In this document: in pieces, positions 47,061 to 56,303 of the stretch | Layout: the number at the start of each line of letters is the position of its first letter | Numbering within the stretch: the first letter of the stretch is position 1 | DNA from: Eximiradius sp. | GTDB lineage: Bacteria > Bacteroidota > Ignavibacteria > Kapaibacteriales > UBA2268 | Length of the DNA: 64,000 nucleotides | Assembly: GCA_937127445.1 (NCBI GenBank) | Contig: CAKZLY010000006.1 | Coordinates: 1-64,000 of the forward strand | Reading direction: 5' to 3' | Notes under the pieces: model-generated | What the model saw: only the letters and a program-made list of their open reading frames with translations | What the model was told of the DNA's origin: nothing | Database searches by the model: none | Position numbers and translations under genes: made by a program

Positions 47061-48908
47061 ATGAAAAAGCATATCGTAATTTATTTAATCGCGTTTTTAC
47101 TCTCCTTTTCAGCATTATTTGCGAGCTTTTATGTAAAAGGAAGAGTGATAAATGACGAACATAAGCCCGTTGCAAAAGCCAAAATTGAATTCAAAGGTTC
47201 GACCAAAACTATTAAAAGTGAAACAAACGCAAAGGGATATTTTTCGTTCGAAACAAGCGACAGCATTGGAATTATTACAATCAAAAGCAAATCATACAGC
47301 ACAAAGCAAATTAAAGTATTTGCATTCAACGATGAAAACTATCTAATTACATTAAGCAAAGAATATAAGATTAGTCATAGAAGCAAAGGATTTTATAGAT
47401 CTGCAGCTTACGGGGGTAGAGCTGAAGCTTTATCTGTTAAAAGCGAAGTCGGAGATATTGCAATGCTGAAAGCATCTTTGGATTTTCACGAACCGCAGCC
47501 AACATTTTCGCAAGATAATATTTCAGCGAAGAAACTCACCGCAGGCGATATAAATGACTTCAAAAAATGGAGAATGTGGAATGATATTTCGGAAAACGAT
47601 TTGTTCGAATATAGAAAAAATTGGTGTTTTAGTCCAATTGATAGATATACGGTTCAGTTAAAAACCACGTCAAACAGTCCTATAGTTGATGCAATAGTTA
47701 TTCTCAAAGACGGAGAGAAAGTTCTATGGCAATCACGAACAGATAATACTGGCAAAGCCGAACTATGGACGAATGCGTTTAACATTTTCGAAAACCATAG
47801 TAGATTAAATGTCGAAATAAATTATAAGAACCGCAGTTATTTCATAGAAAATCCGAAGAAATTTTACGAAGGAATAAACTTTTTAGAGATTGATGAAAAT
47901 TGTAATTACAACAAAAGCTTAGATATTGCTTTTGTAGTCGATGCAACAGGCTCGATGGGCGATGAGATTGAATATTTAAAAGCCGAGCTGACGGATATAA
48001 TTGGACGAGTTAAAGACACAATACCAGAAATGTCGATACGAATTTCGGCGTCCTTCTATCGTGATTTTGGCGATGAATATTTAGTGAAATCTGTTGATTT
48101 CACACAAGATATTACAAAATTGATAGATTTTATTAAAACAAATTATGCTGATGGCGGAGGAGATTTTCCAGAAGCAGTAGATTATGCTCTGGAAGAAGCG
48201 ATTGCGAATTTGAGTTGGAGCGAAGATGCTACCTCAAGAATTATCTTCCTTGTGCTTGATGCTCCCCCCCACTCCCAACCCGAAGTTATTGAACGGCTTC
48301 AAAAACATATAAAGCTTGCTTCGGCAAAAGGGATTCGCATTGTTCCGTTAACTTGTAGCGGAATAGACAAAAGTACAGAATATCTGATGAGAGCATTTGC
48401 AATTCTTACAAATGGAACGTATCTGTTTCTAACCGATGATAGTGGTATTGGTGGGAAACATTTAGAGCCGACAACCGATAATTATTCAGTTCAGTTGCTG
48501 AATTCATTGATTTTGCAAACAATCTATCAGTTTAGCTACCTGCCACCTTGTATTACGAAAACTGTGCTTACAGGCGATACCTTAATTGTAGCTAACCACA
48601 ACAATGAAACGATAAATTCGGTTATGCCATCTGATGAAATGATTACCAACAGCAATAATTTTGAAATTAAATGGAAGTATTACCCGAATCCTTGTCCAGG
48701 GATATTGAATATAGAGCTCAAACAAGATATAAAAGAACTATTCATCGCAGATATTACAGGGAAAATAATCTATCGAATTGAGAATTCAAGCAATAAATTG
48801 ATTAGTATAGACTTAACAAGTTTTCCTAACGGATACTATTTTATTAGATATGAGTATGAACCAGACAAATGGCTTAACGGAAAATTTATTTTGCAGAGTT
48901 CAAATTAA
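47061..48908 (+). CDS. Exported VWA-domain protein with carboxypeptidase-like N-domain and T9SS-like C-terminus
   Basis: The 615-residue protein has a signal peptide (1-22), a carboxypeptidase-regulatory-like fold (about 24-100, VKGRVINDEHKPVAKAKIEF) and a middle domain (about 195-275). The VWA domain (about 288-500) has the metal site DATGSMGDEI at Asp294 and a later VLDAPPHSQPEV. The C-terminal 75 residues resemble a T9SS sorting domain (YYPNPCPGILNIELKQDIKE, IDLTSFPNGYYFIRYEYEPD). It is likely secreted to the surface, with a ligand bound through its VWA metal site. It is monocistronic. Confidence 0.82.
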   Translation: MKKHIVIYLIAFLLSFSALFASFYVKGRVINDEHKPVAKAKIEFKGSTKTIKSETNAKGYFSFETSDSIGIITIKSKSYSTKQIKVFAFNDENYLITLSKEYKISHRSKGFYRSAAYGGRAEALSVKSEVGDIAMLKASLDFHEPQPTFSQDNISAKKLTAGDINDFKKWRMWNDISENDLFEYRKNWCFSPIDRYTVQLKTTSNSPIVDAIVILKDGEKVLWQSRTDNTGKAELWTNAFNIFENHSRLNVEINYKNRSYFIENPKKFYEGINFLEIDENCNYNKSLDIAFVVDATGSMGDEIEYLKAELTDIIGRVKDTIPEMSIRISASFYRDFGDEYLVKSVDFTQDITKLIDFIKTNYADGGGDFPEAVDYALEEAIANLSWSEDATSRIIFLVLDAPPHSQPEVIERLQKHIKLASAKGIRIVPLTCSGIDKSTEYLMRAFAILTNGTYLFLTDDSGIGGKHLEPTTDNYSVQLLNSLILQTIYQFSYLPPCITKTVLTGDTLIVANHNNETINSVMPSDEMITNSNNFEIKWKYYPNPCPGILNIELKQDIKELFIADITGKIIYRIENSSNKLISIDLTSFPNGYYFIRYEYEPDKWLNGKFILQSSN

Positions 48909-51271: not shown

Positions 51272-52594
51272 ATGAAAAAACAACGTGTAATCATCATTGG
51301 TGCCGCTGGTCGTGATTTTCACAATTTTAACACAATGTATCGCGACAATGAAATGTATGAAGTCGTTGCCTTTACAGCAGCTCAAATTCCAGATATTGAT
51401 GGACGTAAATATCCTGCATCATTAGCAGGGAAACTCTATCCGAATGGGATTCCAATTTTTGATGAAGCTGATTTAGAAAAATTAATCAAAGAATATAATA
51501 TAGATGAATGTGTATTATCATATAGCGACCTTCCTTATGATAAAGTTATGCACATTGGCTCGCGAGTAATGGCAGCTGGTGCAAAATTCTCAATGATGGG
51601 TTCATATCCAACAATGATAAAATCAACAAAACCTGTTATTTCCATTTGTGCAGTTCGCACAGGTTGTGGGAAAAGCCAAACTACAAGAGAAGTTGTTCGT
51701 CAATTGATAGCAATGGGCAAGAAAGTTGTTTCAGTTCGTCACCCAATGCCTTATGGAGATTTGGAAGCACAGAAAGTTCAGCGTTTTGCTTCTATCGAAG
51801 ATTTAGACAAGCACAACTGCACAATTGAAGAGATGGAAGAATACGAACCGCATATCGCAATGGGTTCGGTAATTTATGCTGGAGTTGATTATGAAGCAAT
51901 TCTACGTGAAGCAGAAAAAGAAGCTGATGTAATAGTATGGGACGGTGGCAATAATGATATGCCATTCTATCAACCAGATTTACATATAGTAGTAGTTGAC
52001 CCATTACGTCCTGGACACGAAATTAGCTACTATCCTGGTGAAGTAAATCTACGTATGGCTGATGTAGTAGTAATAAATAAAGTTGACTCTGCTTATCCAG
52101 AAGATATTGAAGAAGTATTGGATAATGTTCGTGAATACAATCCAAAGGCGCATATTATTCTTGCTGCGTCATCAATTATGGTTGAAAAACCAGAAGTTAT
52201 CAAAGGCAAGAACGTATTGGTAGTTGAAGACGGTCCAACTTTAACACACGGCGAAATGGATCACGGTGCAGGTATGGTAGCAGCTCGTCGCTATGGTGCT
52301 GCTGACTTTGTCGATCCACGTCCTTATGTTGTTGGCAAAATTGCTGAAACATTCGAAATTTATCCAGAAATCGGCATATTGCTTCCAGCAATGGGTTATG
52401 GCAAGCAACAAATGGCTGACCTTGAAGCAACAATCAACAATGTTGAGTGCGATTCGGTTGTAATCGGTACTCCTATTAATCTTGCTCGTTTCATCAAAAT
52501 CAACAAGCCAAATACCCGTGTTTACTATGAATTAACAGAGATTTCTGCACCAAAAATCGCAGATGTTCTTAGAGATATGCCAAAATTAAAGTAA
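51272..52594 (+). CDS. Cyclic 2,3-diphosphoglycerate-synthase-like GTPase
   Basis: The 440-residue protein is of the family often annotated as cyclic 2,3-diphosphoglycerate synthetase, first known from methanogens. The N-terminal Rossmann-like half starts RVIIIGAAGRDFHNFN. The middle carries an ATP/GTP-type P-loop, SICAVRTGCGKSQTTREVVR, followed by VIVWDGGNNDMPF, IVVVDPLRPG and VVINKVD, the last a G4-like NKxD motif. Bacteria of this type are not known to make cyclic 2,3-DPG as a thermoprotectant, so the real substrate is open. Here it is coupled to ornithine aminotransferase 36 bases upstream. A strong terminator follows. Confidence 0.85.
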   Translation: MKKQRVIIIGAAGRDFHNFNTMYRDNEMYEVVAFTAAQIPDIDGRKYPASLAGKLYPNGIPIFDEADLEKLIKEYNIDECVLSYSDLPYDKVMHIGSRVMAAGAKFSMMGSYPTMIKSTKPVISICAVRTGCGKSQTTREVVRQLIAMGKKVVSVRHPMPYGDLEAQKVQRFASIEDLDKHNCTIEEMEEYEPHIAMGSVIYAGVDYEAILREAEKEADVIVWDGGNNDMPFYQPDLHIVVVDPLRPGHEISYYPGEVNLRMADVVVINKVDSAYPEDIEEVLDNVREYNPKAHIILAASSIMVEKPEVIKGKNVLVVEDGPTLTHGEMDHGAGMVAARRYGAADFVDPRPYVVGKIAETFEIYPEIGILLPAMGYGKQQMADLEATINNVECDSVVIGTPINLARFIKINKPNTRVYYELTEISAPKIADVLRDMPKLK

Positions 52595-52612: not shown

Positions 52613-52648
52613 AAAAGAGGTTGCCCGAATGTGGCAACCTCTTTTTTT
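52613..52648 (+). terminator. Terminator after the GTPase gene
   Basis: A perfect 9-bp stem GAGGTTGCC / GGCAACCTC (52617-52625 and 52633-52641) is flanked by AAAA and TTTTTTT. Confidence 0.88.
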
Positions 52649-52761: not shown

Positions 52762-55347
52762 ATGTATAGGAACATTCAACTTATTTTTATTATTTTATCT
52801 TTATTATTTCTAAATGCTTCAATAAATGCGAAAAATATATCTCAAAGTGAAATAAAAACAATTCTTAACTCGGGTACAAGATATATCATTCCTTTGAATG
52901 GACAATGGGAAAAATCCTCTGACGGATTAAACTGGGAAAATGTTCATATACCTTATTCTGATGTCAATTTAGAAAAGATCACATTAATAAGAAAAGTGCG
53001 AATAGAAAAATCCCAACAAGAATCGCTAAGCTGGCAGTTATTCTTTTTGGGATTTAATCATCAAGCAGAGATCTCAATCAATGGACAATTTTTAGGACGA
53101 TTTATCAGTTCGATGGCTCCAATATGGGTTAAAATTCCACCAAAAGTTTTAAATGCAGGCGAGAACGAATTAAGAATAACATTTTTAGTGCCGAACGATG
53201 TCATTAAGACTATTTTTGAACACTATATTTACGCAAGAAAGAGATATAATGGATTAGTTCGTGAAGCTTTTTTAATTGGAAATCCACCTGTATGGATCAG
53301 CGATATAAACACAAATTATTCGTTGTCAAATAATTACTCGCAAGCAAATATAAATGCTACTATTTCTGTTTCCTCAGCTAATTTCGACTTGATTTCAAAA
53401 TTTCAGAGCAGTGTAGGTGAAAATTTAGAATTGAAAAATAAAGCGAATTTCCAGATAGAAACTAAAATTATAAAAATCGGTACGGGTGAGATAGTTGCAA
53501 TCGGGGAACCGCGTCAGATTTCTATCGAAGCAGAACGAACCATAAATGTAAGTGTAAAATTTAATATAACTTCTCCATCGTTATGGTCGCCATCAAATCC
53601 TAATTTATATCAAGTTCAGGCAACGATTGTTCAGGCGGGGAGAACTGTTGACAATTTTGCAACAAATTTTGGGTTACGCGAGATATCTGTGTCGAGGGCA
53701 GAAAAATCTAATTTTACACTTAATGGCTATAAAATTCCGCTAAAAGCCGTAAGTTATATTGATTATCATATTTCTTCTGGGCAAAGTTTATCGATATGGA
53801 GAATGGAAGAAAACATTAGAATGATAAAAACGCTTGGTGCAAATGCAATTCGTTTTCAGTTTAACCCTCCTCATCCATATTTTGCTTATTTGTGTGATAA
53901 ATATGGTTTATTAATGCTTCTTGATTTACCAATATACTCTATTCCTGAAACACTGTTGAGAAGAGACGAAGTTAAAGTATATATAAAAAATCAAAGTAAA
54001 TTATTTACGTATTTTAAGCAAAACTATGCTTCAACATTAGCATTTGGTTTTTCCGATGGAATTTGCGAAGACCATTTTCCTAATGAATTTGCTTCAGAAA
54101 TCAAGCCTATTATTACTTCAAATGGGAACTACTTATTCTACAAGTTTATTAATCCAAATGAAAAAACAATCACTTCGAACATTTTTGATTTTATTGGCAT
54201 CAATTTGAAGAAAGAGACTTCGATATCGCATCAGTATAGTATTTTGAAGGGAATAATACAAAGGAGCAATAATAAACCTTTTGTTACTTGCTTTGGCGTC
54301 CCCATAAACGAAAACAATCATAACGGGTACTCCGACCCATATTCTTATGAACACCAAGCTTTTTATATTAAAAGTCTCTATAATTTATCTTTTCAGAATG
54401 GTTCGTTTGGTGTAGTAATAAATTCTTTCAACGATTATGAGCTTCATCACCCATATTTAGCCACAAACAATTATCATTCATCAATTTTGACAATAGGGAT
54501 TACAAATGCAACTAATAAGCCCCGTTTTTCATATACAATGCTGCAAGCACTTTTCAATGACGAAAAAGAGCCATTGATAAATGCAGGTAGTTATGCAGGC
54601 GAAACGTTAGTTAGTTTCTTAATATTTGGTTTTATATTGTTGGTTGTATTGCTGTTTTTTATAAATCGTTTCAGACGTTTTCGGGAATATCTCACACGTG
54701 CGATGCTGCGTCCATATAATTTTTATTCTGATATTCGAGACCAAAGGATAATACCATCATTTCAAACTGTAATACTTGCACTAATTGTATCGTTTACGAT
54801 AGGAATGTATGTAACCTCTCTCCTATTTTATTATAGGAATTATGATATAACACAATTTTTGATAATGCTTTGTTGTCCATCGAGTTTTTTGCAGGAAATC
54901 ATTTACAAAATGATTTGGATGCCTGAGGTTTCGCTTTTTATTATAGCATTAATTAGTTTTGTTGTATTATTTGCAATTTCAATAATCATAAAAATCTTTG
55001 CTTTCTTTTCACGAGCAAGAATTTATTTTTCAGATTGTTTGATTATTTCGGTTTGGGCAAGTGCGCCATTTGTAGTGCTGCTGCCATTAGCAATTCCATT
55101 AATTCGATTACTTGAAATAAATAATACTATTGCAATTATAGCGGTTATTCTATTTTTGTTAATTAAATTTTGGGTAATTGCACGAATATTAAAAGCATCT
55201 GCTGTTGTCTTTGATAAGCCTTCTGCATTAGTTTATAGTATTGGGATAATCGTAATTTTAGTATTTGCTGCTATTCCGATAGGTTTTTATCAGATTAATT
55301 ATCAATTTTTCTCGTATTTGATGTATTTCTGGTGTACATATCTTTAA
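52762..55347 (+). CDS. GH2-like pseudo-glycosidase fused to a polytopic membrane domain
   Basis: Starting at ATG 52762, the 861-residue protein has a hydrophobic signal segment and then a GH2-like layout. First comes a beta-sandwich sugar-binding domain (WQLFFLGFNHQAEISINGQF), then an Ig-like domain (WSPSNPNLYQVQATIV), then the TIM-barrel part (AVSYIDYHISSGQSLSIWRM, IKTLGANAIRFQFNPPHPYF, LCDKYGLLMLLDLPIY). The acid/base Asn-Glu expected after the PSI..W element is missing (ASTLAFGFSDGI), and the nucleophile Glu site reads NKPFVTCFGVP. About 250 C-terminal residues form several membrane helices, Yip1-like in look. It is probably a membrane-bound, non-catalytic sugar-binding protein. An upstream start at 52735 is possible. 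Confidence 0.72.
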   Translation: MYRNIQLIFIILSLLFLNASINAKNISQSEIKTILNSGTRYIIPLNGQWEKSSDGLNWENVHIPYSDVNLEKITLIRKVRIEKSQQESLSWQLFFLGFNHQAEISINGQFLGRFISSMAPIWVKIPPKVLNAGENELRITFLVPNDVIKTIFEHYIYARKRYNGLVREAFLIGNPPVWISDINTNYSLSNNYSQANINATISVSSANFDLISKFQSSVGENLELKNKANFQIETKIIKIGTGEIVAIGEPRQISIEAERTINVSVKFNITSPSLWSPSNPNLYQVQATIVQAGRTVDNFATNFGLREISVSRAEKSNFTLNGYKIPLKAVSYIDYHISSGQSLSIWRMEENIRMIKTLGANAIRFQFNPPHPYFAYLCDKYGLLMLLDLPIYSIPETLLRRDEVKVYIKNQSKLFTYFKQNYASTLAFGFSDGICEDHFPNEFASEIKPIITSNGNYLFYKFINPNEKTITSNIFDFIGINLKKETSISHQYSILKGIIQRSNNKPFVTCFGVPINENNHNGYSDPYSYEHQAFYIKSLYNLSFQNGSFGVVINSFNDYELHHPYLATNNYHSSILTIGITNATNKPRFSYTMLQALFNDEKEPLINAGSYAGETLVSFLIFGFILLVVLLFFINRFRRFREYLTRAMLRPYNFYSDIRDQRIIPSFQTVILALIVSFTIGMYVTSLLFYYRNYDITQFLIMLCCPSSFLQEIIYKMIWMPEVSLFIIALISFVVLFAISIIIKIFAFFSRARIYFSDCLIISVWASAPFVVLLPLAIPLIRLLEINNTIAIIAVILFLLIKFWVIARILKASAVVFDKPSALVYSIGIIVILVFAAIPIGFYQINYQFFSYLMYFWCTYL

Positions 55348-55404: not shown

Positions 55405-55408
55405 ATTG

Positions 55409-55480
55409 AGCCAATTAGGGGACTTGAACCCCTGACCTGCTCATTACGAGTGAGCTGCTCTACCACTGAGCTAAATTGGC
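55409..55480 (-). tRNA. tRNA-Thr (anticodon CGT)
   Basis: This is a 72-base cloverleaf. The acceptor stem is GCCAATT/AATTGGC, the D-arm is GCTC...GAGC, and the anticodon arm is GCTCA-CTCGTAA-TGAGC with anticodon CGT (reads ACG). The T-arm is AGGGG-TTCAAGT-CCCCT and the discriminator is T. No CCA is encoded. It is the second threonine isoacceptor in the window. Confidence 0.96.
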
Positions 55481-55622
55481 TTAACTACATTACAAAATTA
55501 AGTATTTGAGCTAAAAAAATCAACACTGAAATTTTTTTTAATTTTTCTGAAACGATTAAACCAATCGGGTGTAATTTAGTCAAAAGGTTAAAATTCCTTT
55601 CAACAATATTATGGAGATTATT

Positions 55623-56303
55623 ATGAAAAACAAATTATTCCGCAACATTTATGTAGTTGCAATTTTAGCAGCAGTATTTGGATTATCGTCTTGCCAGAAA
55701 GACAATCCAGTTGAGCCCGTGGACAATGGCTTAGATTATTCAATGGTGCTTGTTTCACCCGAAGCAATGGTGGGCGAACTTTCTCAGCCAAGCTTAACGA
55801 CAGATTTCACACTGCAGAATGTCTATGACAAGATGTTAATGCCACCTTTTGATAACAAAGGAAAAGGTCCAAATGGGGAAATGCCACCAAAGCCTGAACC
55901 AAACAAGCCACCATTCAAAATTGGAGTCCTATTGCGAATGCTCGAACTTGACTCAGCACAAAGAGAGCAGGTAAAGATTTTTGTACAAGAGCTCGAAGAT
56001 TGCATCAAAGAGTATCGCCAAATGTTACGTGAAGCTCAACGCGCAATAATTGAAAATGCGAACGCGCAACGCCGCCAGATTATGGAGCAACTAAAAGCTG
56101 GTGAAATAACGAGGGAGCAAGCAATGCAAGCACTCAAACAGTTGCGTGAAGAAACTCGAATGGCGATGGAATCTAACGAAGACATTGCAACAGCTCGCCA
56201 AGGTTTGAAAGATTGCCACGATGCTTTTCTTGAAAATGTCAAATCAATACTTACAACTAAACAATTGGAAATTTGGAACAAATTCTTTGGAATAAAAGAA
56301 TAA
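55623..56303 (+). CDS. Lipoprotein with helical Spy/CpxP-like region
   Basis: ATG 55623 follows ATGGAGATTATT and gives a lipoprotein signal ending in LSSC (Cys24). The mature protein has a proline-rich linker (about 85-100, GEMPPKPEPNKPPF) and then a long charged helical domain (about 105-220): LDSAQREQVKIFVQELEDCI, REAQRAIIENANAQRRQIME, EQAMQALKQLREETRMAMES and a final LTTKQLEIWNKFFGIKE. LTTKQ echoes the LTxxQ motif of periplasmic Spy/CpxP chaperones, but this is only a resemblance. The gene is single, with its own terminator. Confidence 0.72.
   Translation: MKNKLFRNIYVVAILAAVFGLSSCQKDNPVEPVDNGLDYSMVLVSPEAMVGELSQPSLTTDFTLQNVYDKMLMPPFDNKGKGPNGEMPPKPEPNKPPFKIGVLLRMLELDSAQREQVKIFVQELEDCIKEYRQMLREAQRAIIENANAQRRQIMEQLKAGEITREQAMQALKQLREETRMAMESNEDIATARQGLKDCHDAFLENVKSILTTKQLEIWNKFFGIKE

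What the first reader, a model, noticed from the sequence alone, without database searches (positions are those of the whole stretch)
52762..55347. GH2-like protein with both catalytic glutamate sites lost, fused to a membrane module
The sugar-binding, Ig-like and TIM-barrel parts follow the GH2 plan (including the LCDKYG motif). Where GH2 enzymes carry the acid/base Asn-Glu this protein has FSDG, and where the nucleophile Glu is expected it has NKPFVTCFG. About 250 C-terminal residues form several membrane helices, an unusual attachment. It may be a sensor or binding protein rather than an enzyme.
Basis: partly seen in the sequence, partly recalled or inferred. Interest (0 to 1): 0.65.

Follow-up and report, generated by a model that had tools for sequence, protein, structure and literature searches.

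The report
Conserved dead GH2–Yip1 membrane protein
An ancient single-copy bacterial protein keeps the complete shape of a sugar-cutting enzyme but has lost its cutting residues, and that dead enzyme is welded to a Yip1 membrane module; nearly all relatives in its bacterial class keep it, often directly in front of the chromosome-organising gene smc, so it is probably a housekeeping envelope receptor or scaffold for which I found no description.

Summary
The ORF (861 aa, window 52762-55347, +) has a signal-peptide-like start, a full GH2 core (jelly roll, Ig, TIM barrel; Z 35 to GH2 beta-galacturonidase 6ncx) and a Yip1-like six-helix membrane module. With 22 ordinary GH2s as positive control (acid/base Asn-Glu in 22/22, nucleophile Glu in 21/21 readable), 0 of 135 orthologues keep both catalytic Glu: 112 have neither, 19 only the nucleophile, 4 only the Asn-Glu. 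In the window they are D432-G433 and C510. Orthologues with the same fusion occur in nearly all sampled genomes of the order (98/100 match), most of the class, and three families of other classes. The tree follows the taxonomy, and dN/dS is 0.03-0.13 in every domain. Outside Kapaibacteriales the gene lies directly upstream of smc (31 of 33 loci, median gap 9 bp). The most conserved stretch is a cytosolic motif after TM1 (RRFREY..R..RPYNFY.DIRDQR), and one family keeps only the Yip1 half, still before smc. Best reading: an inner-membrane protein with a non-catalytic periplasmic pseudo-GH2 ectodomain, acting as receptor or scaffold. The ligand and exact role are not shown.

The parts
52762..52830 (+). 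Signal-peptide-like N-terminus (residues 1-23)
   Evidence: Hydrophobic stretch 4-22 conserved in the family; helix 2-16 in the model. Cleavage after A23 is inferred; no signal-peptide predictor was run.
52879..53331 (+). GH2 N-terminal sugar-binding jelly roll (about residues 40-190)
   Evidence: Pfam GH2_N 0.0011 (below cut-off), GH2_N2 0.0028; structure match from residue 26.
53332..53697 (+). GH2 Ig-like domain (about residues 191-312)
   Evidence: Pfam Glyco_hydro_2 1.4e-14.
53698..54573 (+). GH2 TIM barrel without catalytic residues (about residues 313-604)
   Evidence: Pfam GH2_C 3.7e-8 for the first part; eight strands in the model; VIA-align Z 35.0, rmsd 2.6 A, 524 residues with 6ncx.
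54055..54060 (+). Acid/base position: D432-G433 where GH2 enzymes have Asn-Glu
   Evidence: N-E in 22/22 ordinary GH2s; both together in 4/135 family members.
54289..54291 (+). Nucleophile position: C510 where GH2 enzymes have Glu
   Evidence: E in 21/21 readable ordinary GH2s; E in 19/135 family members, never together with Asn-Glu.
54295..54357 (+). Family-specific conserved loop after strand 7 (G512...NHNGYSDPxSxExQ532)
   Evidence: N519 126/135, G522 134/135, D525 120/135, S528 133/135, Q532 129/135; most conserved cleft-side loop.
54607..54669 (+). First transmembrane helix (residues 616-636)
   Evidence: Hydropathy, helix 617-636 in the model.
54670..54759 (+). Predicted cytosolic motif RRFREYLTRAMLRPYNFYSDIRDQR (within residues 637-666)
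   Evidence: Most conserved stretch of the protein: mean JS 0.617, 18 of 30 positions in the top decile; 8 K/R; kept in Yip1-only proteins.
54760..55302 (+). Yip1-like membrane module, five further helices (residues 667-847)
   Evidence: Pfam Yip1; model of residues 606-861 has pLDDT 93.5.
52613..52645 (+). Terminator-like hairpin upstream, separating the gene from its upstream neighbour

Best explanation
It is an inner-membrane protein with a large periplasmic ectodomain descended from a GH2 beta-glycosidase (beta-galacturonidase/glucuronidase-like) that no longer hydrolyses sugar. The ectodomain (residues about 24-612) works as a binding or docking module. TM1 carries the chain into the membrane, where a conserved positively charged cytosolic segment and a five-helix Yip1 module form the functional core. 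Most likely it is a housekeeping envelope receptor or scaffold: the ectodomain holds an envelope ligand (a glycan or an envelope protein) and the Yip1/cytosolic part acts on a membrane or cytosolic partner. Shown by computation: architecture, loss of the catalytic residues, purifying selection, vertical inheritance, smc linkage. Inferred: topology. Proposed: binding and coupling.
For: GH2 fold with Z 35 and pLDDT 90.7. 0/135 members keep both catalytic Glu, against 21/21 ordinary GH2s readable at both sites. dN/dS 0.03-0.13 in each domain between congeners, dS about 0.7-1.7. 98/100 relatives match, as do most of the class and three families of other classes. Gene tree: order and other-class groups are each one side of a branch. 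Only GH2_C in its genome. The cytosolic motif is the most conserved stretch, and one family keeps only the Yip1 half before smc. The positive-inside pattern fits N-out, motif-in.
Against: No ligand, partner or phenotype was tested. Cleft-side loops of the barrel are not more conserved overall than the opposite side, which argues against a conserved glycan pocket; the control for that test was itself uninformative. The smc linkage may only reflect an ancestral housekeeping operon, so it is weak evidence of function. 19 orthologues keep the nucleophile Glu.
Confidence: 0.55

Rival explanations
1. Protein-binding scaffold only: the GH2 fold is a rigid ectodomain that stabilises or targets a membrane partner (as rBAT/4F2hc do for SLC7 transporters) and has no sugar ligand.
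For: Cleft loops as a whole are not specially conserved; several active-site residues are gone; the Yip1/cytosolic side is the most conserved part; Yip1-only versions exist.
Against: One cleft loop (512-532) is almost invariant, so something probably still binds near the old active site; that something could itself be a protein.
Confidence: 0.3
2. Still an enzyme using different chemistry: one remaining acid plus other residues (D558, E530, D476, or E334 where present) catalyse hydrolysis or transfer.
For: D558 132/135 and E334 110/135 are conserved; 19 members keep the nucleophile Glu and 4 the Asn-Glu.
Against: D558 is also conserved in ordinary GH2s (21/21) and so looks structural; E334 is Asp in this protein; neither catalytic position is fixed in the family.
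Confidence: 0.08
3. A decaying GH2 gene part hitchhiking on a useful Yip1 domain.
For: Catalytic residues drift freely; one family has only the Yip1 half.
Against: dN/dS 0.03-0.13 in the GH2 domains too; full-length retention in nearly all members; GH2 core residues W275, Y283, D297, G359, G382, G579 invariant.
Confidence: 0.05

Closest known systems
GH2 beta-galacturonidase / beta-glucuronidase (6ncx, 5z1a, 6xxw, 8dhe)
   Same: Jelly roll, Ig-like and TIM-barrel domains in the same order; 16-20% identity, rmsd mostly 2.3-2.8 A over about 520 residues.
   Different: Both catalytic Glu, the HxD/HED His, the SHxP His and the strand-8 Trp are lost here; fused to a Yip1 membrane module.
Yip1 domain family, PF04893 (YIPF proteins; bacterial Yip1-family proteins)
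   Same: Profile match over nearly the whole model (4-170 of 173) and a polytopic alpha-helical module.
   Different: Borderline score; an extra TM with the RRFREY..RPYNFY.DIRDQR motif; a 600-residue GH2-fold ectodomain. [quoted passage not shown]
rBAT/4F2hc (SLC3) heavy chains
   Same: Catalytically doubtful glycosidase-fold ectodomain attached to a membrane protein ('fake or orphan alpha-glucosidases', PMC8537225). Analogy only.
   Different: Alpha-amylase-family (GH13) fold, one TM, separate SLC7 partner; here GH2 fold and a multi-helix module in one chain; no homology claimed.
Klotho proteins (from my own knowledge)
   Same: Pseudo-glycosidase ectodomain on a membrane anchor serving as co-receptor. 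Analogy only.
   Different: GH1 fold, animal, single TM.

Membership tests
Glycoside hydrolase family 2 | Jelly roll + Ig + TIM-barrel fold | tested here: met
Glycoside hydrolase family 2 | Acid/base Asn-Glu | tested here: not met
   D432-G433; 22/22 control GH2s have N-E
Glycoside hydrolase family 2 | Nucleophile Glu | tested here: not met
   C510; 21/21 readable controls have E
Glycoside hydrolase family 2 | Hydrolysis of a beta-glycoside | not testable with these tools
   needs an assay
Yip1 domain (PF04893) | Sequence profile match | tested here: met
   Borderline: 26.6, 28.2 and 29.0 bits in three searches, cut-off 28.6; 46/89 family members at E<=1e-3
Yip1 domain (PF04893) | Fold like a solved Yip1 structure | tested here: inconclusive
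   No significant PDB match (Foldseek best E 2.0; VIA best Z 5.8)
Yip1 domain (PF04893) | Membrane-traffic or transport function | not testable with these tools
   No function reported for prokaryotic members (PMC6682643)

The most novel reading that the evidence does not exclude
A clade-wide housekeeping protein that links the periplasm to the cytosolic face of the membrane and, through its probably co-transcribed partner smc, ties envelope growth or division to chromosome organisation; it would also give a prokaryotic Yip1 protein its first defined role.
Probability: 0.07. Interest if true: 0.85.

Novelty: new variant of a known kind. Interest (0 to 1): 0.55.

Why it matters
Pseudo-glycosidases on membrane anchors are well known in animals (Klotho, rBAT/4F2hc), but I found no description of a bacterial one that is single-copy, vertically inherited and nearly universal in a class. 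Annotation by GH2 profile would list it as a glycosidase in hundreds of genomes; this genome has no other GH2. It also offers a way into an open question, what prokaryotic Yip1 proteins do, because the orthologue occurs in the cultured Melioribacter roseus directly upstream of smc.

Tried and rejected
Chimeric or frameshifted ORF: rejected, the same architecture recurs in other genera and families. Recent pseudogene: rejected by dN/dS and retention. Horizontal transfer of a CAZyme: rejected, the gene tree follows the taxonomy. Hidden catalytic pair at other positions: no convincing pair by sequence; D558 is also conserved in ordinary GH2s. Cleft versus bottom-loop conservation as a sign of ligand binding: inconclusive, because the control set does not separate the two classes. 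PDB search with the Yip1 module: no significant match, which says nothing about relatedness. Literature searches for GH2/Yip1 pseudoenzymes found nothing on this family.

Full report
WHAT IS THERE. The ORF at 52762-55347 (+) encodes 861 aa. Pfam finds GH2 Ig (1.4e-14), the start of the GH2 TIM barrel (3.7e-8), weak GH2 N-terminal domains and a borderline Yip1 domain at 648-836. AlphaFold2 with 81 aligned sequences gives pLDDT 90.7. The model's residues 26-612 are a complete GH2 core: VIA-align Z 35.0, rmsd 2.6 A over 524 residues with the Eisenbergiella tayi beta-galacturonidase 6ncx, then beta-glucuronidases; Foldseek E 7e-35 with 3cmg.

CATALYTIC RESIDUES. The profile of the family aligned to solved GH2s puts acid/base Asn-Glu opposite D432-G433 and the nucleophile opposite C510. 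As a positive control I aligned 22 ordinary GH2 proteins from related genomes by the same procedure: Asn-Glu in 22/22, nucleophile Glu in 21/21 readable, His333 in 21/22, His367 in 22/22, Trp554 in 21/21. Among 135 family members none has both catalytic Glu: 112 have neither, 19 only the nucleophile, 4 only the Asn-Glu. Of six active-site residues 54 members keep none and no member keeps more than three. Several members from other classes keep a 'TEYG'-like nucleophile motif (L109, L110, L113, L114) but lack Asn-Glu, so the acid/base site is lost almost throughout and the nucleophile drifts by lineage. This is a pseudoenzyme family, not a single mutated gene.

CONSERVATION AND DESCENT. 98 of 100 relatives match, nearly all with one full-length match. 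In a class-wide sample 140 of 149 genomes match, some of them (family f19, genus g55) only through the Yip1 half. Ten genomes of families f30, f33 and f48 in other classes match over most of the protein including the Yip1 part, while many other members of the phylum only give ordinary GH2 hits and family f35 gives none. Named loci are mostly Kapaibacteria/Ignavibacteria MAGs. The gene tree puts the order and the other-class rows each on one side of a branch. dN/dS between congeners is 0.03-0.13 in every domain, GH2 parts included. In this genome it is the only GH2_C protein and the only clear Yip1.

CONTEXT. In 31 of 33 loci outside Kapaibacteriales, smc lies immediately downstream on the same strand, median gap 9 bp, commonly followed further on by lpxB and lpxK. 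The two Yip1-only loci examined also precede smc. In Kapaibacteriales the gene has moved: next to purC and rodA/ftsW in some, next to a SprA-like gene and hrcA/grpE in others (these names are my reading of the sequences). In the window it stands alone, with terminator-like hairpins on either side (the downstream one is called on the minus strand) and a tRNA-Thr behind; smc is on another contig.

MEMBRANE PART. Hydropathy gives TM helices near 616-634, 670-688, 725-743, 762-780, 789-807 and 824-842; charges fit a periplasmic GH2 part and a cytosolic 637-666. That segment is the most conserved in the protein and is kept in the Yip1-only proteins. The module alone folds with pLDDT 93.5 and has no significant PDB match. 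A review states that no function is reported for prokaryotic Yip1 proteins (PMC6682643).

MECHANISM. Loss of both catalytic Glu together with strong purifying selection means that the GH2 fold is kept for something other than GH2 hydrolysis. The strongest constraint is on the cytosolic/membrane side. One loop beside the old nucleophile (NHNGYSDPxSxExQ) is almost invariant in the family, so a docking site near the old cleft is likely. I therefore propose a membrane-anchored, non-catalytic ectodomain that binds an envelope ligand or partner and couples it to the Yip1 module. Whether the ligand is a glycan or a protein is open. A functional link to SMC is only a possibility: smc sits in what looks like an old housekeeping operon.

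MEMBERSHIP. By fold it descends from GH2; by the defining catalytic residues, which were tested and not met, it should not be called a GH2 enzyme. It may work like, but is not related to, rBAT/4F2hc and Klotho.

Noticed in passing
L106:8929-9705 and L128:9352-10209: In family f19 (genus g55) the gene before smc encodes only the Yip1 half (258-285 aa); other f19 genera have neither half by these searches.
   Followed up: partly
window 47061-48908: Secreted von Willebrand factor A protein with a type IX secretion sorting tail (Pfam Por_Secre_tail 2.2e-9).
   Followed up: no
window 55611-56303: Small lipoprotein-like protein with a charged helical C-terminal part; no Pfam match.
   Followed up: no
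window 51272-52594: Predicted nucleotide-binding protein with weak CobW similarity, next to a class III aminotransferase; by memory like cyclic 2,3-diphosphoglycerate synthetase, not tested.
   Followed up: no
G055:C1:1992554-1994919 and G050:C60:3793-6400: In two relatives the orthologue appears in two or three pieces, possibly frameshifts or decay.
   Followed up: no
window 55408-55480: tRNA-Thr (CGT) on the minus strand directly behind the gene.
   Followed up: no
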